From: Acidiphilium multivorum AIU301
GTDB lineage: Bacteria > Pseudomonadota > Alphaproteobacteria > Acetobacterales > Acetobacteraceae
Assembly: GCF_000202835.1 (NCBI RefSeq)
Contig: NC_015186.1
Span: 744,001-808,000 of the forward strand
Direction of reading: 5' to 3'
Length of the DNA: 64,000 nucleotides
The notes under the pieces were generated by a model. It had not been told where the DNA came from, searched no databases, and saw only the letters and a program-made list of their open reading frames with translations. A program made the position numbers and the translations under genes. Below are positions 7,733 through 38,300 of this stretch, one piece after another. Every line of letters begins with the position of its first letter. Position 1 is the stretch's first letter.

Positions 7733-9208
7733 ATGGACACCGAGCCCGAGGACGAAGCCGCCACGCTCAGCCCGAGCCAGATGCGCCTGACCGCGCTGAT
7801 CGTCGCCACCGCGCTGTTCATGCAGAATCTCGACGGCACGATCGTCGCCACCGCCCTGCCGGCGATGGCGAAGAGCTTCCACGCCGACCCGCTGCACATG
7901 AGCCTGGCGCTCACCTCCTACCTGCTGTCGCTCGCGATCTTCATCCCCGCCTCCGGCTGGTTCGCCGACCGCTTCGGCAGCCGCACGGTCTTCCGCGCCG
8001 CGATCCTGGTCTTCACCATCGGCTCGATCCTCTGCGGCCTGTCGCAGAGTCTCGGCCAACTCATCGCCGCGCGCATCTTCCAGGGGCTCGGCGGCGCGAT
8101 GATGGTGCCGGTCGGCCGGCTGCTGCTGCTGAAATCCGTCCGCCGGCGCGACATGATCGCGGCCACCTCCTGGCTCACCATGCCGGCGCTGCTCGGCCCG
8201 ATCATCGGCCCGCCGCTCGGCGGCTTCATCGTCACCTATCTCTCCTGGCGCTGGACCTTCGACATCAACGTTCCCATCGGCCTGATCGGCATCGTCGCCG
8301 TCACCCTCCACGTCCGCGAGGTGAAGGACGCCGAGCACGCCGGCCGGCTCGACATTGCCGGCCTCGTCTGGAGCGGCCTCGCCATGGCGTTGCTGATGTC
8401 CGGCTTCGAGACGATCGGCCGCGGACTCATCCCGCTCGGCTGGAGCCTCGGCTGCTTCGCCGCCGGCGCCGTCGCCTCGCTCGCCTACTGGCGCCATGCC
8501 CGCCGCCACCCGCACCCGATCCTCGATCTCACGCTGATGCGGATCGACACCTTCGCCAATTCCACCATCGCCGGCAGCTTCTTCCGCGTCCTCGCCGGCG
8601 CGATGCCCTTCCTGCTGCCGCTGATGCTCCAGCTCGGCTTCGGCGATTCGGCGGCGAAATCCGGCACCATCACCTTCGCCGCGGCGGTCGGCGCGCTGGC
8701 GATGAAGCCGCTCGCCGAGCCGATCCTCCGCCGCCTCGGCTTCCGCGTGGCGATGATGCTGTTCGGCGGCCTCGCCGTGGTCTTCACCGCCGCCTGCGCC
8801 GCCTTCCGCCCCGGCTGGCCCGAACTCGCGCTCGATGCCGTGCTGCTGGTCGGCGGCGTGTTCCGCTCCCTCCAGTTCACCGCCCTCAACACCATCGCCT
8901 ATGCCGACGTGCCGCGCAGCCGCATGAGCGCCGCCACCAGCTTCTACGCCACCTTCCAGCAGATCACCCTCACCCTCGGCATCTCGGTCGCCGCCGGCGC
9001 GCTGGAATTCACCACGATCTTCGCCGGCCACGCCGAGCCCTCGATCGCCGATTACGGCTGGGCCTTCCTCATCGTCAGCGCGATCGGCGGACTCTCGGTG
9101 CCGGTCTGCGCCAGGCTCTCGCCCGCCGCCGGCGACGATGTCAGCGGCCATCACGCGCCGCCGCCCGCCGGCCCGGCGATTGACGCGAACCCGGCGGCGC
9201 GCCAGTAA
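7733..9208 (+). CDS. DHA2-type MFS drug/compound exporter (EmrB/QacA family)
   Basis: A 491-aa inner-membrane protein with about 14 hydrophobic segments. Family features seen: MQNLDGTIVATALPAM with the conserved Asp in TM1, the loop GWFADRFGSRTVF (motif A), and the motif-C-like ALLGPIIGPPLGGFI. This is the pattern of proton-coupled multidrug exporters. The ATG has a strong GAGGAGG site five bases upstream. No membrane-fusion partner (EmrA) is adjacent, so it may work alone or with a partner elsewhere. The substrate cannot be predicted. Confidence 0.9.
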   Translation: MDTEPEDEAATLSPSQMRLTALIVATALFMQNLDGTIVATALPAMAKSFHADPLHMSLALTSYLLSLAIFIPASGWFADRFGSRTVFRAAILVFTIGSILCGLSQSLGQLIAARIFQGLGGAMMVPVGRLLLLKSVRRRDMIAATSWLTMPALLGPIIGPPLGGFIVTYLSWRWTFDINVPIGLIGIVAVTLHVREVKDAEHAGRLDIAGLVWSGLAMALLMSGFETIGRGLIPLGWSLGCFAAGAVASLAYWRHARRHPHPILDLTLMRIDTFANSTIAGSFFRVLAGAMPFLLPLMLQLGFGDSAAKSGTITFAAAVGALAMKPLAEPILRRLGFRVAMMLFGGLAVVFTAACAAFRPGWPELALDAVLLVGGVFRSLQFTALNTIAYADVPRSRMSAATSFYATFQQITLTLGISVAAGALEFTTIFAGHAEPSIADYGWAFLIVSAIGGLSVPVCARLSPAAGDDVSGHHAPPPAGPAIDANPAARQ

Positions 9209-9238
9209 CGGGGCATCGCAAGCGGAAATGGATCTCCC

Positions 9239-10976
<1,738 letters not shown>

Positions 10977-24337: not shown

Positions 24338-25159
24338 ATGACCGCCAGCATCATCGGGCCCGAGGATATCGACGCCGTTCTGGCGACCGTTCCGCGGCAG
24401 CGCATCCGGCCGCTCGATGCGGTGCGCGCGCTGATCCGCCTGGCCCGCGACCCGGAGGACACCCAGCAGGTGGCGCTGATGGGCATCGCGCTGGCCGGGC
24501 GTTCGCAGCGCCGGGTGTTCCGCCGCTTCGTATCGTTCCCCGCCGGGCAGGCGGTGATCCGCGAGAAGCGGTCGCTCGCCCGCACGCTCGATGATCACGA
24601 CTACCTGCGTACCCTGAAGCCGAATTCGCTCGGGCGGCACTATCTCGCCTTCATGGAGCGCGAGGGGCTGTCCGCGCGCGGCCTGATCGAGGCGACGCCG
24701 GCGGTGACCCGGAAGCTCAGCGAACTGCCCGAGCCGATCAGGCTCTTTTCCAGCTACACGTCGCGCGACATGCATGATCTCTATCATGTCCTCACAGGCT
24801 ATGGCCGCGACGAACTGGGCGAGGTCTGTGTGCTCGCGGTGAGTTACGAGCAGCTTCGCATCCGCGCCTTCCGCCTGATCAGCACGACCGGCCCGTTCGT
24901 GGTGCGGCGCTATCTGCGCAAGGCCGGGATCGACGGCGATGGTGTGTTCGCCGCCGTGCGCGAGGCGCGGCGGATCGGGCGCGCGGCGGCGTGGATCCCG
25001 AGCCTCGATATCGAGGCGCTGCTGGCCGAGGATCTCGACGAACTGCGCGCCCGGCTCAACCTCGCCGAACCGGTGGCCTATCGCGCGGTGATCGCCCGCA
25101 TCCGAACGGCGACGGGTTGGAACAGCGGGCCGTTCACCGCGCTGGCGCGGACGGTCTGA
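24338..25159 (+). CDS. COQ4 family protein (ubiquinone biosynthesis)
   Basis: A 273-aa protein with the COQ4 zinc-ligand motif: His146-Asp147-x-x-His150, then 11 residues to Glu162 in HDLYHVLTGYGRDELGEV. Eukaryotic COQ4 organises the ubiquinone synthesis complex and takes part in ring decarboxylation-hydroxylation; bacterial homologues occur mainly in alphaproteobacteria. A GCGGAGGA site lies just upstream of the ATG. The intergenic region before it (24290-24337) is A/T-rich and may hold a promoter. The role is inferred from the family only. Confidence 0.82.
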   Translation: MTASIIGPEDIDAVLATVPRQRIRPLDAVRALIRLARDPEDTQQVALMGIALAGRSQRRVFRRFVSFPAGQAVIREKRSLARTLDDHDYLRTLKPNSLGRHYLAFMEREGLSARGLIEATPAVTRKLSELPEPIRLFSSYTSRDMHDLYHVLTGYGRDELGEVCVLAVSYEQLRIRAFRLISTTGPFVVRRYLRKAGIDGDGVFAAVREARRIGRAAAWIPSLDIEALLAEDLDELRARLNLAEPVAYRAVIARIRTATGWNSGPFTALARTV

Positions 25160-25517
25160 TTTCTGATCCGCCGGCGCTGGCGCGGCCTCCCGCGGAAGCG
25201 GTCGGTGCGCAGCCGACCGGGCTGATCGCGGATCCGCCACATTGATGACGGTGCGTTGCGGTAGAGGACAGGCCAAGAGATCGCGCTGTCCGGCCCCCCT
25301 GTGCTTCGGCCTCGACGATTCCGATTGACAGGCGTGGGCGGACAGGCGAGGGTTGGATTGTATCGCATTCCGATGCCGGTGATGGAGTTCACCGTGTAAC
25401 CGCCCGTGGGGCCGATGACTCCTGTTCATATCCGCTACAGCGGAAGAGGACGGGTGTCATGGTGCGTATTGGCCGGAACTGCCTTCATTCAGCCCGACGG
25501 AACCATCGGTTGCGCTC
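25160..25517. other. 358-base intergenic region before the hydrogenase-like operon
   Basis: It contains a 7-bp hairpin (CGGTCGG at 25199-25205 with CCGACCG at 25213-25219), not followed by a T-run, which may lie in the coq4 3' end. A TTGACA hexamer at 25325-25330 has no good -10 at 16-18 bases. No coding sequence is convincing. The operon promoter probably lies here but I cannot point to it. Confidence 0.5.
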
Positions 25518-26471
25518 ATGACCGTGCGCGACGCCATTCTGCAGGCCTGCCAGGTGGCGTTCACGATCGCGGCGGCGCCGTTCATCCAGGGGTGCATCGT
25601 CCAGTTCGAGGAGCGGATCCAGCGCGGGCACGGCCCGGGGGTGCTGCAGCCCTACCGGGATCTGTGGAAACTGTTCCACAAGGACATCGTCGTGCCGGAG
25701 ACCGCCTCGTGGCTGTTCTGGGTGACGCCCGTTGTCGCCTTCACCTGCATGATGACGGTGCCGATCCTCATTCCGGTGCTGACAAACTATCCGCTGCCGC
25801 TCTCGAACATGGGGGACATTCTCGGCGGCGGGCTGATCCTGACGCTCGGCTCCTTCATGATCACCCTGGCCGGGCTCGATACCGGCAGTGCCTATGGCGG
25901 GATCGGGTCCAGCCGCGCGGCGGTCATTGGCATTCTCGCGGAGCCGACGCTGATCCTCGTTTTCGTCGGCATCACCCTGTTCGCGCGGTCGATGCTGCCC
26001 TTCGTGGTGAACCACCTGCTGGTGGCGAGCCCGGCGGTCTATCTCGGTCCCGCGCACCTGTTCCTGGTCGCCGCGTTCTTCATCCTGCTGACGGTCGAGA
26101 CCGACAGGCTGCCGATCCATTCCAGCACGCATATCGAGGTCTACATGATCGAGGAGGCGCGCGTGCTCGAATATGCCGGCCCGCTGCACGCCCTGCTCAA
26201 ATGGGCGTCGATGATGAAGCAGTTCATCCTCTACACGATCTTCTGCAACGTGCTGACGATGCCGTGGTTCCTCTCCACGCGCGGGCTGGCGCCGGGCGTG
26301 CTCGGCAGCGCGGCCGGCGTGATCGTGAAATTCGTCATCGTCGCCTGTGCCATCGTGACGGTCGACACGATCCAGGCGCGGTTGCGCTTCTACCGCTATC
26401 AGGAACCGCTCGCGGTTTCGTTCCTGCTGGCGGTCCTCGCCATTATCGGCACGCAGATCGGACTCGGGTGA
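25518..26471 (+). CDS. HyfC/HycD-like (NuoH-related) membrane subunit
   Basis: A 317-aa integral membrane protein with about eight hydrophobic segments. It matches the quinone-channel subunit of complex I and group-4 hydrogenases: FIQGCIVQFEERIQRGHGPG opens the protein, PYRDLWKLFHK follows, and the loop SSTHIEVYMIEEARVLEYAGP holds the conserved acidic cluster near the quinone/proton entry. It is the first gene of a six-gene run; its stop overlaps the next ATG (TGATG). No strong ribosome binding site is seen before it. Confidence 0.88.
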   Translation: MTVRDAILQACQVAFTIAAAPFIQGCIVQFEERIQRGHGPGVLQPYRDLWKLFHKDIVVPETASWLFWVTPVVAFTCMMTVPILIPVLTNYPLPLSNMGDILGGGLILTLGSFMITLAGLDTGSAYGGIGSSRAAVIGILAEPTLILVFVGITLFARSMLPFVVNHLLVASPAVYLGPAHLFLVAAFFILLTVETDRLPIHSSTHIEVYMIEEARVLEYAGPLHALLKWASMMKQFILYTIFCNVLTMPWFLSTRGLAPGVLGSAAGVIVKFVIVACAIVTVDTIQARLRFYRYQEPLAVSFLLAVLAIIGTQIGLG

Positions 26472-27151
26472 TGCACGGGTTTCACGCGACGCCGGTCGAA
26501 GCCTCGCTGTTCGGCGTTCTCGCCATCGCGAGCCTGCTGCTTGCCTTCGTCATGCTCGGCTCGCGCTGGCTGCGGCATTACCTCATCGCCTTCGCCGCGG
26601 AATCGTGGGCGATCGCGCTGCTCTCGGCGGCGGTCGGGTATATCGACCATTATCCCGAACTCTATGTCATCGCGCTGCTGACCCTGGCGTTCCGGGGAAC
26701 GCTGCTGCCCTACCTGCTGCTCCGCATCATCCGGCGGCTGACGATCGAGCGGGAACTCGAGCCGCTGCTGCGACCGGGGTCGAGTCTGGTGCTGGGCGCC
26801 GGCGCCGTCGTGTTCTCGCTCGTCGTCGCCGCGCGGATGACGCAGGCGCTGCACCTGACGGCCGAGGTCGTCGTGCTGGCGCTGACGGTCATGCTGTCGA
26901 TGAAGCTGATCGGCTATCTGATGCTCGCGGTGCGGCACGAGGCGGTCAGTCACGTTCTCGGGCTGCTGGTCCTCGAGAACGGCATTTTCCTCGGCACGCA
27001 GATTCTCGTGCCCGGCATGCCGATGCTGCTCGAACTCGTGATCCTGTTCGACCTGCTCATCGTCGTCGTCTGCTTCGGCGTGCTGGTGCGTTATCTCGTC
27101 GGGCAGGTCGGCAGCACGAGTGCCTTGCAACTGCGGCGGCTGGTGGGCTGA
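26471..27151 (+). CDS. HyfE-like membrane subunit
   Basis: A 226-aa protein with about seven hydrophobic segments, the size and pattern of HyfE, the hydrogenase-4 subunit related to the NuoK/MrpC type (RHEAVSHVLGLLVLENGIFLG, then LLELVILFDLLIVVVCFGVL). Such subunits take part in ion movement through the membrane arm. It is coupled to hyfC-like by TGATG and to the next gene by a one-base gap. Confidence 0.82.
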   Translation: MHGFHATPVEASLFGVLAIASLLLAFVMLGSRWLRHYLIAFAAESWAIALLSAAVGYIDHYPELYVIALLTLAFRGTLLPYLLLRIIRRLTIERELEPLLRPGSSLVLGAGAVVFSLVVAARMTQALHLTAEVVVLALTVMLSMKLIGYLMLAVRHEAVSHVLGLLVLENGIFLGTQILVPGMPMLLELVILFDLLIVVVCFGVLVRYLVGQVGSTSALQLRRLVG

Positions 27152-27152
27152 G

Positions 27153-28673
27153 ATGACCGGGATCGCGACATCGGTCCTGATCGGCGCGCCGGCACTCGCG
27201 GTGCTGGCGATGCTGGCCGCGCCGCGGCCGCGTCTCGCGGAGCGGCTCAACCTCGCCGCGGCCGGGCTCTGCTTCATCGCCGCGGTCGCGATGACGGTTT
27301 CCGCCCCTGCCGCCGGCGCCCGCTATCTCGGGCGCTACCTGATCGTCGATCCGCTCGGCGCCTGGATCATCCTGTGCGCCGCGGTGGTCTATCTGCTCGC
27401 CTCGATCCATGCCTGCGGCTACATGCGGATGCCGGGAGAGGAAGCGCGGCTGCCGCGGTTCTACCAGCTCTTCGCCCTGTTCGCGCTGACCATCTTCATC
27501 GCGCCGCTGATGAACAATCCCGGGCTTTACTGGATCGCGATCGAGATGACGACCGTGGTCAGCACCTTCCTCGTCGCGTTCGAGCAGGCGGCGGAGGCGA
27601 TCGAGGCAGGGTGGAAATACATCATCATTGTCTCGGCCGGGATCACGCTGGCGCTTCTTGGCACTGTGATCTTCTACTGGGCCGGGACGTTCAGCCTGGG
27701 GCCGACCTACGACATGACCTGGCGCGTCCTGCGGCATGCCGCGCCGCACATGGACCGCGCGCTGCTCGTGCTCGGGTTCCTGCTCGTGCTGGTGGGCTAC
27801 GGCACCAAGGTCGGGCTGGCGCCGATGCACACCTGGCTGCCGGATGCGCACAGCGAGGGGCCGGCGCCGGTCTCGGCGATGCTCTCCGGCGCGCTGCTGA
27901 ACGCGGCGATGGCGGGCATCGTGCGCTATCTCGCGGTGCTGCACCGGGCCGGGCTGTTCATGCTGCCCGACCAGATCCTTGCGGTGTTCGGCACCGCCTC
28001 GCTCCTGGTGGCGGCGCTGTTCATCGTGCGCCAGCGCGGGGTGAAGCGGCTGATGGCGTATTCCAGCGTCGAGCACATGGGCATCGTCGCCCTCGGCTTC
28101 GGTTTCGGCGGGCCGTTCGGCGTCGCGGGCGCGATGTATCACATGCTCAACCACAGCCTGAACAAGTCGCTGATGTTCTTCGGCGCCGGCAACGCGATGC
28201 GCAGTTTCGGCACCCGGTCGATGACGCGGATCCGCGACTATGCGCGCCACTTTCCGGTCGCCGCAGCACTCTGGCTGGCCGGTGCCGTCGCGATCACCGG
28301 CGCGCCGCCCTTCGGCCTGTTCGCCAGCGAGCTGACCATCCTGCGCGCCGGTTTCCGCGGCGCCGGGCTCTGGGCGGCGATCGTGATGCTGGTTCTGCTG
28401 ATCCTGATCTTCATCGGCTTCCTCGATCATTTTCGCGTCATGTATTTCGAGCCGGCCGGGGATGACGCGCCGAGGCCGGCGCGGCTCGGGGCCTGGACCG
28501 TCGCGCCGATGTGGCTCGCGCTGATCCCGTTGCTGGTGCTGGGCCTGTGGTGGCCGCGCGCGATGTGGCGCGATTTCCAGACGGTCGAACAGGTGATCGA
28601 GCGTCCGGCCGCCGCGCCGGGGCCTGCGGCGCGCGCCTCGGCCCGCATGCCGGATGCGCGGAGGGCGTCGTGA
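27153..28673 (+). CDS. HyfF-like (NuoL/M/N-related) antiporter-type subunit
   Basis: A 506-aa membrane protein with about 13 hydrophobic segments. Proton-channel features of the NuoL/M/N and MrpA/D group are seen: YWIAIEMTTVVSTFLVAFEQ (conserved Glu), GYGTKVGLAPMHTWLPDAHS (Lys in TM7 region with the HTWLPDAH motif) and MAYSSVEHMGIVALGFGFGG, MYHMLNHSLNKSLMFF. The C-terminal about 30 residues form a polar Ala/Arg-rich tail. The stop overlaps a GTG start for the large subunit. Confidence 0.9.
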   Translation: MTGIATSVLIGAPALAVLAMLAAPRPRLAERLNLAAAGLCFIAAVAMTVSAPAAGARYLGRYLIVDPLGAWIILCAAVVYLLASIHACGYMRMPGEEARLPRFYQLFALFALTIFIAPLMNNPGLYWIAIEMTTVVSTFLVAFEQAAEAIEAGWKYIIIVSAGITLALLGTVIFYWAGTFSLGPTYDMTWRVLRHAAPHMDRALLVLGFLLVLVGYGTKVGLAPMHTWLPDAHSEGPAPVSAMLSGALLNAAMAGIVRYLAVLHRAGLFMLPDQILAVFGTASLLVAALFIVRQRGVKRLMAYSSVEHMGIVALGFGFGGPFGVAGAMYHMLNHSLNKSLMFFGAGNAMRSFGTRSMTRIRDYARHFPVAAALWLAGAVAITGAPPFGLFASELTILRAGFRGAGLWAAIVMLVLLILIFIGFLDHFRVMYFEPAGDDAPRPARLGAWTVAPMWLALIPLLVLGLWWPRAMWRDFQTVEQVIERPAAAPGPAARASARMPDARRAS

Positions 28674-30106
28674 ACATGCCGTCGAGGCGCGGCATGGACC
28701 CCTCGTCCATCGAGGCCGCGGCCGGCGCGCTGCGCGCTGCGGGGGGCCGGATGATCATGGTCTATGCGGCCCCGGAGGCTGACGGGCGGCAGACGCTGCG
28801 CTACGTGTCGTCGCGCCCGGGGATCGCCGGCTTCGAGGTCTGGAGCGTTCCGGCCGGGGGAACGGTGCCGAGCATCGCCACGATCTGGCCGCTGCTGGGA
28901 TGGTATGAGCGGGAGACGGCCGATCATCGCGGCATCGCCTTCAGCGGGCAGCCGGAGCCGTTTTCGCTGATCGCGCCGCTGCGAGCCGATGAGGAGGCGG
29001 ATCTGCGCCGGCTGCCGGGGCTGTCCGGCGATGCCGTGCAGGTGCTGCCGTTCGGGCCGGTGCGGGCCGGCGTGGTCGAATCGGCCGAGTTCAGCTTCTT
29101 CTATGTCGGCGAGGCGATCCTGCATTACGTGCCGCACCTGTTCCTCAAGCATCGCGGCATGGAAGACCGCTTCGTCGACCAGACGCCGGAGACCGGGCTC
29201 GTGTTGGCCGAGCGCGTTTCGGGGGTCGGCAGCGTGGCGCATGCCCTTGCCTATGCGCAGGCGATGGAGGCCGCCGCGCAGGTGGCCGTTCCCGGCCGCG
29301 CGCGCTACCAGCGGGTGATCGTCGCCGAGCTCGAGCGGCTTTACAATCATCTTCATTATCTCGGCCATCTTGCCGATACGACGACGCTGAAGGTGGCCCA
29401 TGCCGAAGGCGCGCTGCTTGCCGAGCGGGTCAAGCAGATCGGCGCCCGGGTGACGGGCAGCCGGTTCCTGCGCGGCGTGATCGCGCCGGGCGGGCTGCGG
29501 CGGGAGCTGCGCGTCGAGGGTCTTGCCGGGGCGCTCGATGCCCTGCGCGCGCCGATCCGCCGCTACATCGCGCGGCTGGACGCCTCGGAAAGCCATTTCG
29601 ACCGGCTGGCGACGACCGGCGTGCTGCCCCGCGAGGTGGCGTTCGACCAGGGCGCGACCGGGCCGGTTGCCCGTGCCTCCGGCCTCGACCGCGACCTGCG
29701 GCGCGACCATGCCTATGCCGCCTACGACGATCCCGACCTCGCCCTCGCCGTCGCCACCGGGACCGACGGCGATGCCCACGCCCGTGCTCGCGTGCGGATC
29801 GCCGAGATCGAGAATGCGCTGCTGATGATCGAGCGCGCCATCGCGCTGACGCCCGGCGGCGCAATCCGGGTCGCCTGCGCGCCGGCCGCCGGCGCCGAGG
29901 CGATGGGCTGGGCGGAATCGCCGCGCGGCACGCTGATCTATGCCGTGCATGTCGGGCCCGACGGGCGGCTCGCGCGGGTCAAGATCAAGTCGCCCTCCTT
30001 CTCCAACTGGCGGGTGTTTCCCTACACCGTGCACGGCACGAACATGATGGACTACGCGATCAACGAGGCGAGTTTCGGCCTGACCATCGCCGGATGCGCG
30101 CGATGA
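28670..30106 (+). CDS. large subunit of hydrogenase-like complex (HyfG/HycE-type) lacking Ni ligands
   Basis: A 478-aa fusion of a NuoC-like domain (about 1-120) and a NuoD/hydrogenase large-subunit domain (about 125-478). In group-4 [NiFe] hydrogenases the first nickel motif is RVCGICGFAH; here it is RVSGVGSVAH (Ser184 and Gly187 in place of both Cys). The C-terminal DPCxxC motif is also gone: the protein ends EASFGLTIAGCAR with a single, shifted Cys. A [NiFe] site therefore cannot form. GTG start with GGAGG five bases upstream, overlapping the previous stop; ATG 28676 is an alternative. This is the pattern of energy-converting hydrogenase-related (Ehr) complexes. Confidence 0.88.
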   Translation: MNMPSRRGMDPSSIEAAAGALRAAGGRMIMVYAAPEADGRQTLRYVSSRPGIAGFEVWSVPAGGTVPSIATIWPLLGWYERETADHRGIAFSGQPEPFSLIAPLRADEEADLRRLPGLSGDAVQVLPFGPVRAGVVESAEFSFFYVGEAILHYVPHLFLKHRGMEDRFVDQTPETGLVLAERVSGVGSVAHALAYAQAMEAAAQVAVPGRARYQRVIVAELERLYNHLHYLGHLADTTTLKVAHAEGALLAERVKQIGARVTGSRFLRGVIAPGGLRRELRVEGLAGALDALRAPIRRYIARLDASESHFDRLATTGVLPREVAFDQGATGPVARASGLDRDLRRDHAYAAYDDPDLALAVATGTDGDAHARARVRIAEIENALLMIERAIALTPGGAIRVACAPAAGAEAMGWAESPRGTLIYAVHVGPDGRLARVKIKSPSFSNWRVFPYTVHGTNMMDYAINEASFGLTIAGCAR

Positions 30107-30119
30107 GGGGGAGGTGCGG

Positions 30120-30914
30120 ATGGCACTCTGGACGCTGATCGGCCTGCTTGAGGGATCCGCGACCACGTCCTGGCCGCTGAAGCCGGGGCCGGACGGCCAG
30201 GATGGCGTGGTCGGGATGCCGCGGCTCGACCCTGGGCGCTGCGAGGCGGGATGCGAGGTATGCGCGGCATCCTGCCCGACCGGGGCGATCGGTCTCGCCG
30301 GCGCGCGGATCGCGCTCGATTACGGGCGCTGCGTCGTCTGCCAGCGTTGCGTCGAAACCTGCCCGACCGGCGCGCTGGCCGAGAGCAGGGACTGGGCGTT
30401 CGGCGCGCGGACGCGCGACGATCTCAGGACCGGCATCGAAGCCGCCGGCATGGCGGCGCTGGCCGCGGCGGATGGTCCGGGGCGCGGCTTCCGGCGCAGC
30501 CTGCATGTGCGGCATGTCGATGCCGGCTCCTGCAATGGCTGCGAATCCGAGCTGCAGGCCCTGAACAACCCATTCTACAACCTGCACCGTCTGGGCATCT
30601 TCTTCACGCCCTCGCCGCGCTTCGCCGATCTGCTGCTGGTGACCGGCCCGGTCACCCGGGCGATGCTGGAGCCGCTGCGCCGCACCTGGGAGGCGATGCC
30701 GGCGCCGCGCTGGGTCATGGCCAGCGGCACCTGCGCGGTATCCGGCGGCATCGCGCCGGGCGGGCCGTGCCTGTCCGGCCTCGAGGAGGCGCTGCCGGTC
30801 GACCTGTACCTGCCGGGGTGCCCGCCCAATCCGGCGGCGATCATCGAGGCGCTGCTGATGTTCCTCGGGCGCCGGGCGCAACGCGTGCGCGGAGGACGGA
30901 TCGATGGCGAATGA
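30120..30914 (+). CDS. fused ferredoxin / NuoB-like subunit (HyfH-HyfI type)
   Basis: A 264-aa protein joining two subunits that are separate in hydrogenase-4. Residues 37-85 form a two-cluster ferredoxin: Cys41, 45, 48, 52 and Cys71, 74, 77, 81 with the usual CP ends (the first has CxxxC instead of CxxC spacing). Residues 125-240 form the NuoB/small-subunit domain with all proximal-cluster ligands kept: Cys138 and Cys141 (GSCNGC), Cys205 (GTC) and Cys234 (PGCPPNP). Electron-transfer wiring is thus intact although the partner large subunit has no Ni site. ATG 30120 has GGGGAGG six bases upstream. The 3' end overlaps the next gene by 11 bases. Confidence 0.9.
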   Translation: MALWTLIGLLEGSATTSWPLKPGPDGQDGVVGMPRLDPGRCEAGCEVCAASCPTGAIGLAGARIALDYGRCVVCQRCVETCPTGALAESRDWAFGARTRDDLRTGIEAAGMAALAAADGPGRGFRRSLHVRHVDAGSCNGCESELQALNNPFYNLHRLGIFFTPSPRFADLLLVTGPVTRAMLEPLRRTWEAMPAPRWVMASGTCAVSGGIAPGGPCLSGLEEALPVDLYLPGCPPNPAAIIEALLMFLGRRAQRVRGGRIDGE

Positions 30915-32880
30915 CCTGATCGGCCTCGCCACCCTGTTCTGGCTGGTCGCCGGCCTCATCGCGCTGGCGGGCAGGGGGGTCGTGCTCGGCCGCGGGCTGG
31001 CCGGGCTGGGCTGCCTGGCCGGCATGATCGCCGCGATCCTGACGCTGCCGGGGGCCAGTCCGCCGGTGGCGCTGCCCGTCTTCCGCATCGCCGACGAAGG
31101 CTCCGGCTTCACGCTCTCCCCGGCCGCGCTCTGGCTGTTCGGCTTCGGGCTGGCGCCGGCGATGCTGGCGGCCTGGCTCGGCTCGCCGGGGCGGGGCGGG
31201 CGGTTCTGGCTATTCGGACTGTCGATGAGCCTGATCGGCGCGCTCGGCGTCTTCGGGGTGACGCAGGGAGCCGCATTCCTCGTCGCCTGGGAGGTCATGA
31301 GCCTGGGCGGCGCGGCGATGATCCTTGGCGAACGGCTGGCCGAAGGGGCGGGAAGCCGCGCGCTGTTCATGCTCGGCCTGCTCGAGGTGGGGGCCGTGGC
31401 GCTGCTCGCGGCGGTTCTGGTCCTGGGGACTGCGTCCGGCTCCCTGGGCTTCGCGGGGTTCGCCGGGGCCTGGCGCGGGGCGGCGCTCTATGGTCCGGCG
31501 ATCGCCGGCGGGCTCCTGCTCGTCGGGTTCGGCGCCAAGCTCGGGCTGCTGCCGTTCTACGAATGGTTTCCGGGCGCCTATGGGGCGGGCTCGGGCGCGA
31601 CCGGGGCGGTGCTGTCCGGCGTCGTGCTCAACGCGGCGTTCTTCGGCCTGGCGCGAGGCCTGCTGGTCTGGCTGCCGGGCGGGGTGGACGAGGGGTTCGG
31701 CATCGCGCTGTGCGCCATCGGCGTGATCAGCGCGATCCTCACCACGCTCTACGCCTTCCAGCAGGAGGACTGGCGGGCGCTGCTCGCCTTCTCCTCGGCG
31801 GAGAACGCGTCGGTGGCGGTGACCGCACTCGGCGCTTCGCTGCTGTTCGAGGCGGGGCACCTGCCCCTGTTCGCCGGGCTGGCGTTCACGGTCGCGCTGC
31901 TGCATCTCGCCGCCCATGCGCTCGCCAAGGGCGCGCTGTTTCTCGCCGCGGATGGCGTGTTCGCCGCCACCGGCGGCTACGCCATCCGGCAGGACGGCGT
32001 GCTGCGCGCGAACACGCCCCTGTTCGGCATGGGGGCGCTGTTCGCCGCGATGAGCCTGGCGGCGATGCCGCCCCAGGCCGGGTTCGTCTCGGAATGGTTC
32101 ATGTTCCAGACCGTGTTCCAGGGGTTCCACCTGCCGGGATTGGCGGAGCGCCTCACGCTTGTGCTGACCGGCGCGGGGCTTGCGCTGACGGCGGCGATCG
32201 CCTTCGCCACCTTCGTCAAGCTGTTCGGCGTCGGCCTGCAGGGGCGCGCGGCAGACGGCGGCGCGCGGCTTCCCGCGCGGCATCAATCCGCGGTCGGCGC
32301 GCTCGGCCTGGCCGTGCTCGCGCTGGCCGTGGGCATGCCGGTCTGGCTCGGCGCGCTTGCCCGCGTCTGGCCCGCGCACGATGCCATCGACGCCGCGGCG
32401 CACATGACCGACGGATGGATCCTGGTGCCGCTGAGCGCCGGCTTCGCCTTCATCTCGCCGTCGAAGCTGGTCATCGTGATGCCGCTGCTGGCCCTGGTGC
32501 CGGTGGCGGCGATCCTGCTGTGCAGACGCCGGCCCGCGCGGCGCGTTCCCGTCTGGTATGGCGGCTCGCCGCGCCTCGACCGGCGAAATGCGACCACGGC
32601 CCTGACCTTCTCGAATTCGCTCAGGACGTTCTACAGCTTCGTCTATCGTCCGCGCGCGGAAACCGGCGTGGAAACCAGCCTGTCGCCGTATTTCGTGAAG
32701 CATCTGCGTTTCGAGCACGATGTTGCCCCGATCTTCGGCCCCGCCCTGTTCGGCCCGGTGGTGCGGCTGGTGCATGGCCTCGCCCGGCGGGGCCGGGTTT
32801 TGCAGTCCGGCTCCCTCAATCTCTATCTCGGCATCATCGGCCTGTTGCTCGTCGCCATTCTCGTTGTCGCCCTGTTCTGA
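30904..32880 (+). CDS. HyfB-like (NuoL/M-type) large membrane subunit
   Basis: A 658-aa membrane protein with about 15-16 hydrophobic segments. Antiporter-subunit motifs are present: FLVAWEVMSLGGAAMILGE (conserved Glu), GFGAKLGLLPFYEWFPGAYG (Lys before the broken helix) and LLHLAAHALAKGALFLAADG (His/Lys in TM8-12 region). After residue about 540 a cytoplasmic loop (RRRPARRVPVWYGGSPRLDR...) leads to one last C-terminal helix, as in HyfB. It is the last gene of the six-gene core; two DUF190 genes follow after 121 bases. Confidence 0.88.
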   Translation: MANDLIGLATLFWLVAGLIALAGRGVVLGRGLAGLGCLAGMIAAILTLPGASPPVALPVFRIADEGSGFTLSPAALWLFGFGLAPAMLAAWLGSPGRGGRFWLFGLSMSLIGALGVFGVTQGAAFLVAWEVMSLGGAAMILGERLAEGAGSRALFMLGLLEVGAVALLAAVLVLGTASGSLGFAGFAGAWRGAALYGPAIAGGLLLVGFGAKLGLLPFYEWFPGAYGAGSGATGAVLSGVVLNAAFFGLARGLLVWLPGGVDEGFGIALCAIGVISAILTTLYAFQQEDWRALLAFSSAENASVAVTALGASLLFEAGHLPLFAGLAFTVALLHLAAHALAKGALFLAADGVFAATGGYAIRQDGVLRANTPLFGMGALFAAMSLAAMPPQAGFVSEWFMFQTVFQGFHLPGLAERLTLVLTGAGLALTAAIAFATFVKLFGVGLQGRAADGGARLPARHQSAVGALGLAVLALAVGMPVWLGALARVWPAHDAIDAAAHMTDGWILVPLSAGFAFISPSKLVIVMPLLALVPVAAILLCRRRPARRVPVWYGGSPRLDRRNATTALTFSNSLRTFYSFVYRPRAETGVETSLSPYFVKHLRFEHDVAPIFGPALFGPVVRLVHGLARRGRVLQSGSLNLYLGIIGLLLVAILVVALF

Positions 32881-32917
32881 CCGGCGGCTCGCACGATCGG
32901 GAGGATGTCATTTCTTG

Positions 32918-32947
32918 CTGACAGGGCCGGCGGATCGGCGCTAGTCT
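32918..32947 (+). promoter_or_regulatory. candidate promoter for the DUF190 pair
   Basis: CTGACA (32918-32923) and TAGTCT (32942-32947) are 18 bases apart, 54 bases before the ATG. It would let the two DUF190 genes be expressed apart from the upstream complex. Based on pattern only; no consensus fluoride riboswitch is visible in the leader. Confidence 0.3.
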
Positions 32948-33001
32948 CGGTGTAGCGTCGTTGTCCGGGCCGGTTCGACCCGAACGCCGAGGAGGACCTC
33001 G

Positions 33002-33349
33002 ATGCGCATCATGGAAGATGCCCTGCTGCTCAGGGTTTTCCTGGGCGAGGACGACATGGCCGGCGGCCAGCCGCTCTATCGCGCGATCCTCGAGGCGGCG
33101 ATGCGGGCCGGGCTGGCCGGCGGCACGGCGCTGCCGGCCCCGATGGGCTTTGGCGGCTCGCGCGGAATCAGGACGGGCATCAACGTTGATGCCGGGGCGC
33201 ATCAGCCCATCGTCGTCGAGATCATCGACCGGCCGGACCGGATCGAGGCGTTCCTGCCGCTGATCGAGCCGATGATTCCGTCGGGCGTGGTCACGCTGGA
33301 GGCACTCAAGATGCGGAAGATCGTTCCCGGTTCGCCGGCCCCGGCCTGA
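33002..33349 (+). CDS. DUF190 family protein (PII-like fold), copy 1
   Basis: A 115-aa protein matching DUF190: LLLRVFLGEDD, GQPLYRAILEAAMRAGLAGGTALPAPMGFG and QPIVVEIIDRPDRIEAFLPLIEPMI. The family has a ferredoxin-like, PII-resembling fold and often accompanies ion transporters such as CrcB or membrane complexes; its ligand is not established. An ideal GAGGAGG site precedes the ATG. It is followed 30 bases later by a divergent paralogue. Confidence 0.85.
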   Translation: MRIMEDALLLRVFLGEDDMAGGQPLYRAILEAAMRAGLAGGTALPAPMGFGGSRGIRTGINVDAGAHQPIVVEIIDRPDRIEAFLPLIEPMIPSGVVTLEALKMRKIVPGSPAPA

Positions 33350-33379
33350 GGCGGACGAGAAAGCGAGGAGGACACGGCG

Positions 33380-33796
33380 ATGGATGTTCCACACGAGGCT
33401 TCACTGCTGCGGATCTATACCAGCTCGGCCGACCGCCATGGCGGGACGCCGCTGTTCATCGCGATCGTTCACGCGGCGCGGGATCACGGGCTTGCCGGCG
33501 CCACCGTGCTGCGCGGCCCGCTCGGCTTCGGCCATACGGGGCGCCTGCATGAGGGGCATCTTCTGCCGTTCTCCGACGATCATCCCGTCATCATCGAGAT
33601 TGTCGATGCCACCGACAGGATCGAGGCCTTCCTGCCGGTTCTGGATTCGATGATGCAGAGCGGCCTGGTCACCATCGAACGCGCGCGCGTCCTGCAATAC
33701 GGGCGCCACAGGCCGGGCTGGCTTGAACGTGTCCGCCAGCAGTTCTTCCCGGCCTCTCCCCCGCCGGCGGCACAGGCGCGGGTCGGGCTGAACTGA
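33380..33796 (+). CDS. DUF190 family protein, copy 2
   Basis: A 138-aa paralogue of the upstream gene: LLRIYTSSADRHGGTPLFIA, GLAGATVLRGPLGFG, HPVIIEIVDATDRIEAFLPVLDSMM. It has an extra basic C-terminal tail of about 30 residues (RHRPGWLERVRQQFF). The first β-strand differs (YTSSADRHGG instead of FLGEDDMAGG), so the two copies may bind different partners or form a heteromer. GAGGAGG site before the ATG. Both probably serve the hydrogenase-like complex by position, which is inference. Confidence 0.85.
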   Translation: MDVPHEASLLRIYTSSADRHGGTPLFIAIVHAARDHGLAGATVLRGPLGFGHTGRLHEGHLLPFSDDHPVIIEIVDATDRIEAFLPVLDSMMQSGLVTIERARVLQYGRHRPGWLERVRQQFFPASPPPAAQARVGLN

Positions 33797-37477: not shown

Positions 37478-37628
37478 TAAACACAGCCGGATATGGCGTT
37501 GCGGCCAACGGGCCCGAGAGCCGGGTCGTAAAAGATAGTTGAGTGATTTCAGAAGATTATAATTCTGCCGGCTTGCAACAACAGACGGGGTCGCGGTGAT
37601 CTGGACTGAAATCGCTTGGATTTTTCGC

Positions 37629-38300
37629 ATGAAGGAGGGCCGGGATGGAAGGAATCACAAGCCGGAAGAGATTATCGACAAGCTTCGTGAGCCTGAGATT
37701 GCGTTGGCGGAAGGCGGGACGGTTGTGGATGCGTGCCGTTGGATCGGTATCACCGAGCCGAGCTACGACCGCTGGCGCAAGGAGTATGGCGGGCTGAAGA
37801 TGGGCCAGGCACGTCGGACTCGTCATGCCGACATCCTATTTGGAAGTTGGAGCCTCCTGTCTTTCGGAATCCGCCATGAAGGATGAGGCAGGCGGCATCC
37901 CGCGAGCCTCTGGGACCATCAACGAAGCCCGCTTGCCGGGTCGCGCGGGAACTGACCCGTCTGATCGGGTGCCGCGGCCGGCCCGGCATGACCGTTTCCG
38001 GCCACGGCACCGAGTTCACCTCGGACGCCACCCTCGTCTGGTCGAAGGATCACGGGGTGGAATGGCACTAGATCGGGCCCGGCAAGCCGATGCAGAACGG
38101 CGATGTCGAATCCTTCAGCGGCCGCATGCGCGACGAGCTTTTGAACGAGAGCCTGTTCTTCGGCCTCGATCATGCCCGCGCCGCCATCGCTGATTGGGTG
38201 GCGCATTTCAATGCCGCGAGGCCGCACTCCTCGCTCGGCTACCAGACCCCGGCGGACTATGCCGAGGGCCTCACCACAACCGGCACCGAACGGCGTAACA
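37629..38300 (+). pseudogene. decayed IS3-family element (orfA and orfB fragments)
   Basis: 37629-37822 encodes an OrfA start (NHKPEEIIDKLREPEIALAE, GGTVVDACRWIGITEPSYDR, WRKEYGGLKM). Similarity stops abruptly, a segment of about 100 bases unrelated to IS3 follows, and then from about 37930 comes the OrfB integrase end: RVARELTRLIGCRGRPGMTV, GHGTEFTSDATLVW, then an in-frame TAG at 38069-38071, then [20 protein letters not shown] and [20 protein letters not shown]. The second catalytic Asp (normally VSDNGTEF) is Gly, so the enzyme is dead. Most of OrfB and both clear ends are missing. It may separate the rhamnose operon from the genes to its right. Confidence 0.85.

What the first reader, a model, noticed from the sequence alone, without database searches (positions are those of the whole stretch)
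25518..32880. Hydrogenase-4-like complex with no nickel site: an Ehr-type energy-converting complex
Six adjacent genes encode HyfC-, HyfE-, HyfF-, HyfG-, HyfH/I- and HyfB-like subunits. In the large subunit both Ni-binding motifs are lost: RVCGICGFAH reads RVSGVGSVAH (28670 gene, residues 182-191), and the C-terminal DPCxxC is replaced by an EASFGLTIAGCAR ending. The small subunit keeps all its cluster cysteines, and the antiporter-type subunits keep key Glu/Lys residues. So electron input and ion pumping seem intact but H2 chemistry is impossible. Energy-converting hydrogenase-related (Ehr) complexes with this feature are known in Geobacter and others, with partner redox chemistry unresolved; finding one in an acidophile-like alphaproteobacterium with a fused ferredoxin/NuoB subunit is of interest.
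Basis: partly seen in the sequence, partly recalled or inferred. Interest (0 to 1): 0.78.

Follow-up and report, generated by a model that had tools for sequence, protein, structure and literature searches.

The report
Fluoride-defence complex from a dead hydrogenase
Behind a predicted fluoride-sensing RNA switch lies an operon for a relative of hydrogenase and respiratory complex I that has lost all four nickel-binding residues; it likely helps the bacterium survive fluoride by moving ions across the membrane, so genes that were read as a hydrogen-making enzyme probably serve fluoride defence instead.

Summary
In detail: six adjacent HyfC/E/F/G/(H+I)/B-like genes whose large subunit has lost all four Ni ligands. 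A predicted fluoride riboswitch (RF01734, 48.5 bits, cut-off 34) lies 86 nt before the first gene and two DUF190 genes follow the last. The genome has only two such matches; the other precedes crcB, the fluoride channel gene. Of 80 homologous loci, 68 of 68 assessable operons have the riboswitch, often amid CrcB, enolase, MutS or CLC genes; 0 of 27 other Hyf/Ehr-like genes do. The riboswitch-linked large subunits form one clade. Papers call such genes 'formate hydrogen lyase', but here there is no Ni site and no formate-dehydrogenase neighbour. In the mycobacterial form the proximal iron-sulfur ligands are gone too (121 of 121 examined). I read it as a fluoride-induced, H2-dead, ion-moving complex; the fluoride link rests on context, the transport chemistry is inferred.

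The parts
25369..25431 (+). Fluoride riboswitch aptamer (RF01734, crcB motif), predicted
   Evidence: cmscan 48.5 bits, cut-off 34, E 2.2e-10, full-length model 1-64; the only Rfam match in the window at gathering score
25518..26471 (+). HyfC/NuoH-like membrane subunit
   Evidence: PF00146 106 bits; E142, E207, E218 stand in columns where E. coli NuoH also has Glu
26471..27151 (+). HyfE-like membrane subunit
   Evidence: NF008556 hydrogenase 4 membrane subunit, E 4e-12, below its curated cut-off; no Pfam match
27153..28673 (+). HyfF-like antiporter-type subunit
   Evidence: PF00361 170 bits; E131, K219, E393 kept
28676..30106 (+). HyfG-like large subunit without Ni ligands (possible GTG start 28670)
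   Evidence: PF00346, PF00329 and the N-terminal part of PF00374; ligand columns S/G/T/G, GPxH His replaced by Arg
30114..30914 (+). Small subunit: two-cluster ferredoxin domain fused to NuoB/HyfI-like domain
   Evidence: PF01058 and Fer4; 12 ligand Cys present
30904..32880 (+). HyfB-like antiporter-type subunit
   Evidence: PF00361 97.6 bits, NF005086 hydrogenase 4 subunit B E 3e-81, below its cut-off; E130, K212, H338, E397 kept
33002..33349 (+). DUF190 protein
   Evidence: PF02641 93.4 bits
33380..33796 (+). DUF190 protein
   Evidence: PF02641 116.9 bits

Best explanation
Window 25369-33796 holds an operon behind a predicted fluoride riboswitch that encodes a nickel-less hydrogenase-4/complex I-like membrane complex (an Ehr relative) and two DUF190 proteins, and it likely helps the cell survive fluoride by moving ions across the membrane. 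Inferred mechanism: HF enters at low pH and dissociates, so F- and H+ rise inside; F- binding to the aptamer would turn the operon on; the antiporter-type subunits HyfF, HyfB and HyfC would translocate H+ (or Na+), restoring membrane potential and internal pH, on which F- export through the CrcB encoded behind the genome's other fluoride riboswitch would depend. In this proteobacterial form the drive is probably electrons passing through the ferredoxin and proximal clusters to an unidentified acceptor in a rebuilt large-subunit cavity. H2 chemistry is not expected without the Ni ligands. Shown: genes, ligand loss, riboswitch match, clade and neighbours. Inferred: induction by fluoride, ion movement, energy source, acceptor.
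For: Riboswitch match 86 nt before the first gene; two such matches in the genome, the other before the only PF02537 (crcB) gene found. 68 of 68 assessable homologous operons (66 genomes) have it within 800 nt upstream: 58 by model R1, the other 10 by Rfam; 12 of 80 loci were not assessable. 77 of 77 host genomes have RF01734, 76 above cut-off, up to 34 copies. MutS, enolase, DUF190, CrcB, CLC or pyrophosphatase clusters in 59 of 80 loci, 52 of 59 loci of 15 kb or more (each cluster named by one representative). 0 of 27 other Hyf/Ehr-like large-subunit matches in 60 genomes have RF01734 within 100 kb on their contig. One clade, support 100/98, holds the riboswitch-linked large subunits, including Mycobacterium branderi and Alicyclobacillus. 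Ion-path Glu/Lys kept. The 12 ligand Cys of the small subunit are kept in 79-80 of 80. A 2024 review says that F- export depends on the proton-motive force and that HF entry acidifies the cytosol (PMC11139923, passages).
Against: No expression, phenotype or transport data. Neither the Ni ligands nor the complex I quinone His/Tyr are present, so no electron acceptor can be named. In the mycobacterial form the proximal-cluster ligands are lost in 121 of 121, so electron drive is not general to the clade. 21 of 80 loci (7 of 59 of 15 kb or more) show none of the fluoride genes counted. The complex is rare: 1 of 152 genomes drawn from the class, the window's own. No terminator was found behind the aptamer and the leader fold is unremarkable (z -1.62), so the expression platform is unknown. 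R1 was built from such sites, and seven of its 58 matches are weak (E 0.0008-0.01): five of these (L041, L047, L069, L079, L089) coincide with Rfam matches of 49.8-56.7 bits, but L068 and L094 rest on R1 alone in what I saw. In the 27-gene control the contigs are often short and one search used stricter filters.
Confidence: 0.62

Rival explanations
1. The complex is a redox-free exchanger: the antiporter-type membrane arm uses the ion gradient to move F- or HF out, directly, and the large/small-subunit cavity binds the ion rather than an electron acceptor.
For: Mycobacterial small subunits lack all four proximal ligands (C140 to D107/N14, C143 to D 121/121, C207 to D 121/121, C236 to A90/S29/G1/T1) yet the 120 listed relatives stay 67-90% identical to the M. 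branderi query; the one record whose context I saw has the riboswitch, enolase and DUF190. An Arg replaces the GPxH His in 243 of 243 sequences of the clade and in none of 11 Ehr-II, 2 hydrogenase or 2 Nuo sequences.
Against: In the window's own type the 12 ligand Cys are kept in 79-80 of 80, which speaks for electron transfer there. Riboswitch context of the mycobacterial form was seen in one record only. The Allomeiothermus Ehr-II small subunit also lost these Cys, with no riboswitch in its 19-kb locus, so the loss is not specific to fluoride. No transport data.
Confidence: 0.25
2. An ordinary Ehr-type redox valve: when fluoride blocks enolase and metabolism shifts, the complex disposes of low-potential electrons; ion movement is secondary and not aimed at fluoride export.
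For: An enolase cluster is in 24 of 80 loci; a review places the riboswitch-linked 'formate hydrogen lyase' under metabolic acclimation (passage); ferredoxin and proximal ligands kept; [quoted passage not shown]
Against: No formate dehydrogenase partner in the loci (FdhF 0 of 80; other dehydrogenases were not searched for); no acceptor site recognisable; the mycobacterial form lacks the proximal ligands on this route.
Confidence: 0.2
3. A working formate hydrogenlyase or hydrogenase-4, as database names and the fluoride literature suggest.
For: Source names such as 'formate hydrogenlyase subunit 5'; crcB-motif genes described as formate hydrogen lyase (PMC2864571, passage).
Against: No Cys at the four Ni-ligand columns in 121 of 121 of the window's type; no FdhF, HypA, HypB, HypD, HypF or HycI match in 80 loci, while FdhF, HypA and HycI of E. 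coli are found in the Pantoea FHL locus used as positive control (the HypB, HypD and HypF queries came from that locus, so their hits there prove nothing); outside the NiFe clade.
Confidence: 0.01

Closest known systems
Ehr (energy-converting hydrogenase-related) complexes
   Same: Hyf-like subunits and a large subunit without Ni ligands; described in PMC6349859 (passages) as group-4 relatives lacking the residues that coordinate Ni and Fe
   Different: Fluoride riboswitch, DUF190 partners, Arg for the GPxH His, separate clade from the 11 Ehr-II sequences in hand; Geobacter Ehr was not available to compare
'Formate hydrogen lyase' of the crcB/fluoride riboswitch regulon (Weinberg 2010; review 2024)
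   Same: Probably the same genes under another name: hyf-like genes behind crcB RNAs (passages; the papers' gene lists were not seen)
   Different: No Ni site, and no formate dehydrogenase or hyp match in the 80 loci, so the name and the fermentation reading do not fit this clade
E. coli hydrogenase-4 / formate hydrogenlyase
   Same: Subunit families
   Different: Ni ligands absent; no HyfA-like gene and only two antiporter-type genes among the operon's ORFs (E. coli has HyfB, D, F); HyfH and HyfI fused
Complex I (NDH-1)
   Same: 49-kDa, 30-kDa and 20-kDa domains, NuoH/L/M/N-like subunits, ion-path Glu/Lys
   Different: No NADH module among the operon's ORFs; quinone His and Tyr absent (which residues these are is recalled)
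Mrp cation/H+ antiporters
   Same: Redox-free precedent for the antiporter-type subunits (recalled)
   Different: Here a hydrogenase-like peripheral arm is kept

Membership tests
Fluoride riboswitch (RF01734) | Score above the Rfam gathering cut-off, full-length aptamer upstream of a gene | tested here: met
   48.5 against 34 bits, model 1-64 of 64
Fluoride riboswitch (RF01734) | Binds fluoride and raises expression | not testable with these tools
   Needs in-line probing or a reporter
Group 4 [NiFe] hydrogenase / formate hydrogenlyase | Four Cys Ni ligands (CxxC ... CxxC) | tested here: not met
   S, G, T, G; no Cys at these columns in 121 sequences
Group 4 [NiFe] hydrogenase / formate hydrogenlyase | Formate dehydrogenase and hyp/HycI maturation genes nearby | tested here: not met
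   0 of 80 loci at E 1e-6; E. coli FdhF, HypA and HycI find the Pantoea control locus. A HypD gene exists elsewhere in the genome, 7 kb from the group 1-like hydrogenase gene
Ehr complex | Hyf-like subunits with large subunit lacking Ni ligands, outside active hydrogenases | tested here: met
Ehr complex | Falls with Geobacter Ehr in a tree | not tested
   No Geobacter Ehr sequence was in hand; the 11 Ehr-II sequences used instead form a neighbouring clade (98/93)
Complex I (NDH-1) | Quinone-site His and Tyr of the 49-kDa subunit | tested here: not met
   Mostly Leu/Val, and Gly/Ala, in their place
Fluoride-responsive regulon | Shares riboswitch and neighbourhood with CrcB, CLC, enolase, pyrophosphatase, MutS | tested here: met
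   68 of 68 assessable operons with riboswitch; 59 of 80 loci with such neighbours
Redox complex (electron path to large subunit) | Four Cys of the proximal [4Fe-4S] cluster | tested here: met
   80 of 80 in the window's type; 0 of 121 in the mycobacterial type

The most novel reading that the evidence does not exclude
A complex I-type machine turned into a dedicated fluoride pump: the former hydrogenase/quinone cavity, now marked by an invariant arginine, binds F- (or HF) and its passage is coupled to ion flow through the antiporter subunits; the mycobacterial line has exchanged three of the four proximal iron-sulfur ligands for acidic residues (Asp, or Asn at one site), possibly a Mg2+ site, and runs without electrons.
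Probability: 0.2. Interest if true: 0.94.

Novelty: new variant of a known kind. Interest (0 to 1): 0.79.

Why it matters
Ehr complexes lack an established role; this clade has one suggested by its leader RNA. It also recasts an entry in the fluoride literature, 'formate hydrogen lyase' as a common riboswitch-linked enzyme, as a Ni-less and probably ion-moving complex, with a direct prediction (fluoride phenotype, no H2). If the mycobacterial form really works without a proximal cluster, complex I-like coupling could run without electron transfer to the cavity, which would bear on how complex I couples redox to pumping.

Tried and rejected
CO2/bicarbonate pump (DabAB-like) idea: dropped once the neighbours proved to be fluoride genes; two paper searches on it gave nothing useful. 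Coq4 at 24338-25159 as a quinone clue: no Coq4 match in any of 80 loci (E 1e-8), so it looks like a chance neighbour. Invariant C474 as a metal ligand: invariant in 121 of 121 of the window's type, but Val in the M. branderi and Alicyclobacillus sequences; dropped as a clade-wide feature. Terminator/antiterminator: not resolved. Orphan large subunit on the Alicyclobacillus plasmid: one search found no other subunit in its 19-kb locus (one short weak HyfC hit apart); the annotation of the whole plasmid names none, but that gene table is incomplete and the chromosome is not in hand.

Literature: that I found nothing in print joining Ehr and fluoride rests and on this library only. Baker 2012, the review's source, was not read; I know it through the review's passages and recall. 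Passages only were read of PMC2864571, PMC11139923, PMC12595759, PMC6349859 and PMC8004769; PMC12361115 was searched for five terms with no hit; all other papers were seen as search listings.
Full report
WHAT IS THERE. The window is G000:C6:744001-808000; C6 is 3,749,411 bases, the length I recall for the Acidiphilium multivorum AIU301 chromosome; a named relative, A. iwatense, has a 73% identical large subunit. Six + strand ORFs at 25518-32880 encode HyfC-, HyfE-, HyfF-, HyfG-, ferredoxin+HyfI- and HyfB-like proteins. Two DUF190 genes follow at 33002 and 33380.

THE SWITCH. cmscan of the whole window at gathering scores gives a single Rfam match: the fluoride riboswitch, 25369-25431, 48.5 bits against a cut-off of 34, 86 nt before hyfC. 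The genome search gives two such matches. The other precedes the only PF02537 (crcB) gene found, which is followed by a DUF190-like ORF (my reading of the translation, no profile run).

THE FAMILY. A scan of one genome for each of 84,980 species found 208 stretches that encode a relative of the large subunit and kept the best 80 as loci; they lie in 77 genomes. All 77 have RF01734 and 76 pass the cut-off; copy numbers run from 1 to 34. With model R1, built from 19 sites at such loci including the window's, 58 of 68 loci with an assessable hyfC start have a match within 800 nt upstream on the coding strand. The other 10 have one by Rfam's own model. The 68 loci come from 66 genomes; L092 and L093 are the same stretch on two contigs of one genome. 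Twelve loci could not be assessed (hyfC missing, incomplete or at a contig end). Three distances are long (L031 472, L045 535, L048 490 nt). Seven R1 matches are weak (L041, L047, L068, L069, L079, L089, L094); five coincide with Rfam matches of 49.8-56.7 bits, L068 and L094 do not in the rows shown, and L094's genome has no Rfam match better than E 3.3e-6.

CONTROL. In 60 related genomes I counted 27 other Hyf/Ehr-like large-subunit matches (29-36% identity, E 1e-34 to 1e-57). Seven of them were read and are Ni-less (L011-L016 and L103); the other 20 were not inspected. 0 of 27 have an RF01734 match within 100 kb on their contig (which used stricter filters; many contigs are short). Of six fluoride-type matches in the same set, the three with upstream sequence (G000, G008, G010) have it; the other three lie at contig ends.

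OTHER COMPLEXES IN THIS GENOME. A second Ni-less complex lies at about C6:1620900-1627900, and a third, very divergent one near C6:1383600-1386800; neither is near the two riboswitch matches.

NEIGHBOURS. Clustering the ORFs of the 80 loci and naming each cluster by the Pfam match of one representative gives MutS in 32 loci, enolase 24, DUF190 22 and 17 (two clusters), MFS 21, CrcB 16, dynamin 14, CLC 10, cyclopropane synthase 7, pyrophosphatase 4. 59 of 80 loci have at least one of MutS, enolase, DUF190, CrcB, CLC, pyrophosphatase, and 52 of 59 loci of 15 kb or more; 21 of 80 have none. An annotated Burkholderia multivorans plasmid shows such a set in one 25-kb stretch with seven riboswitch matches. 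FdhF, HypA, HypB, HypD, HypF and HycI queries find nothing in the 80 loci; as positive control E. coli FdhF, HypA and HycI find the Pantoea FHL plasmid locus, from which the HypB, HypD and HypF queries were themselves taken.

LIGANDS. At the four Ni-ligand columns the window's type (window and 120 listed relatives) has S 121, G 121, T 118/S 3, G 121; the GPxH His is Arg in 121 and the quinone Tyr is Gly 98/Ala 23. The mycobacterial type (M. branderi and the 120 listed of 2824) has E 120, A 87/S 31/C 2, C 74/S 45/G 2, G 113/A 8, and Arg in 121: single Cys remain at one column in many, never the full set. Arg is also in Alicyclobacillus; His is in all of 11 Ehr-II, HyfG, HycE, NuoCD and NuoD. 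That Arg thus marks the fluoride clade (243 of 243). Its anion-binding role is speculation.

TREE. Of 31 large subunits, the 14 fluoride-type rows form one clade (100/98), next to 11 Ehr-II rows (98/93) and apart from 3 NiFe and 3 Nuo rows; the root is a midpoint, for drawing only. M. branderi and Alicyclobacillus are long branches; leaving out either keeps the clade (99/93 and 99/96). Their loci have riboswitch matches, before the large-subunit gene in Alicyclobacillus and before a NUDIX gene that leads into the operon in M. branderi, which supports the placing independently. Geobacter Ehr was not available.

CLUSTERS. In the small subunit the four proximal-cluster Cys are present in 80 of 80 of the window's type (window, B. 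multivorans, 78 of 80 loci; 2 loci dropped because the match was not near full length). In 121 of 121 mycobacterial-type sequences (M. branderi and the 120 listed of 5037 hits) all four are replaced: D/N, D, D, and A/S/G/T, while four ferredoxin-type Cys remain in 120-121. The alignment is ungapped around each site in the 15 sequences printed. The change is conserved, so it is not decay. Riboswitch context for this form was seen in one record. A similar loss occurs in an Allomeiothermus Ehr-II complex, apparently independent on this tree (its row is a long branch), with no riboswitch in the locus searched (L112). This argues against a fluoride-specific reason and for redox-free Ehr-like complexes in general.

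MECHANISM. Glu/Lys residues of the membrane arm are kept. Passages of a 2024 review say that HF entry acidifies the cytosol, that Fluc/CrcB export uses the membrane potential, and that Na+/H+ antiporters are the next most common riboswitch-linked class after the exporters (PMC11139923). A fluoride-induced ion pump fits that list. I commit to ion translocation in the service of fluoride defence, with electrons as the likely drive in the window's type; the redox-free reading is the main rival.

KNOWN AND NEW. Genes behind crcB RNAs were described in 2010 as including formate hydrogen lyase (PMC2864571) and are still read so in 2024. Ehr complexes are known as Ni-less (PMC6349859). I found no paper in this library joining the two. 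New here: the identity of the riboswitch-linked complex, its single clade and Arg marker, and the cluster-less form.

LIMITS. The complex is patchy: 5 of 12 same-genus genomes and 1 of 152 of the class, the window's own.

Noticed in passing
own genome G000:C6:1620900-1627900 (L103:3939-10946): A second Ni-less HyfB/C/E/F/G/I-like complex (RVSGDSTVAYA; C-terminus SFNAAYSGCDL) without a fluoride riboswitch nearby.
   Followed up: partly
own genome near G000:C6:1383600-1386800 (L107:7601-10757, - strand): A third, very divergent Ni-less large-subunit-like reading frame beside a NuoB-like small subunit (43% identical to the window's over residues 126-262).
   Followed up: partly
own genome G000:C6:418723-420312 (L104): A hydrogenase large subunit with the Cys ligands and a small subunit beside it (group 1-like by my reading), and a HypD gene at C6:410330, so the host can probably make NiFe sites.
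   Followed up: partly
L112 and L122 (Allomeiothermus silvanus pMESIL01): Two copies on one plasmid, sharing most protein accessions, of an Ehr-like complex whose small subunit has lost the proximal-cluster Cys.
   Followed up: partly
L111 (Alicyclobacillus sp. ALC3 plasmid) 8863-10359: A fluoride-type large subunit directly behind a riboswitch match with no other subunit gene annotated on the plasmid, near CrcB and DUF190 genes.
   Followed up: partly
G125 (L084, Paraburkholderia sp. DHOC27) and G078 (L036, Ancylobacter dichloromethanicus): 34 and 24 fluoride riboswitch matches in one genome; those listed lie mostly on one contig: large fluoride islands.
   Followed up: no
window 37596-38193: Transposase-like fragments downstream of the sugar-nucleotide (rfb-like) genes, as judged from the translations.
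   Followed up: no
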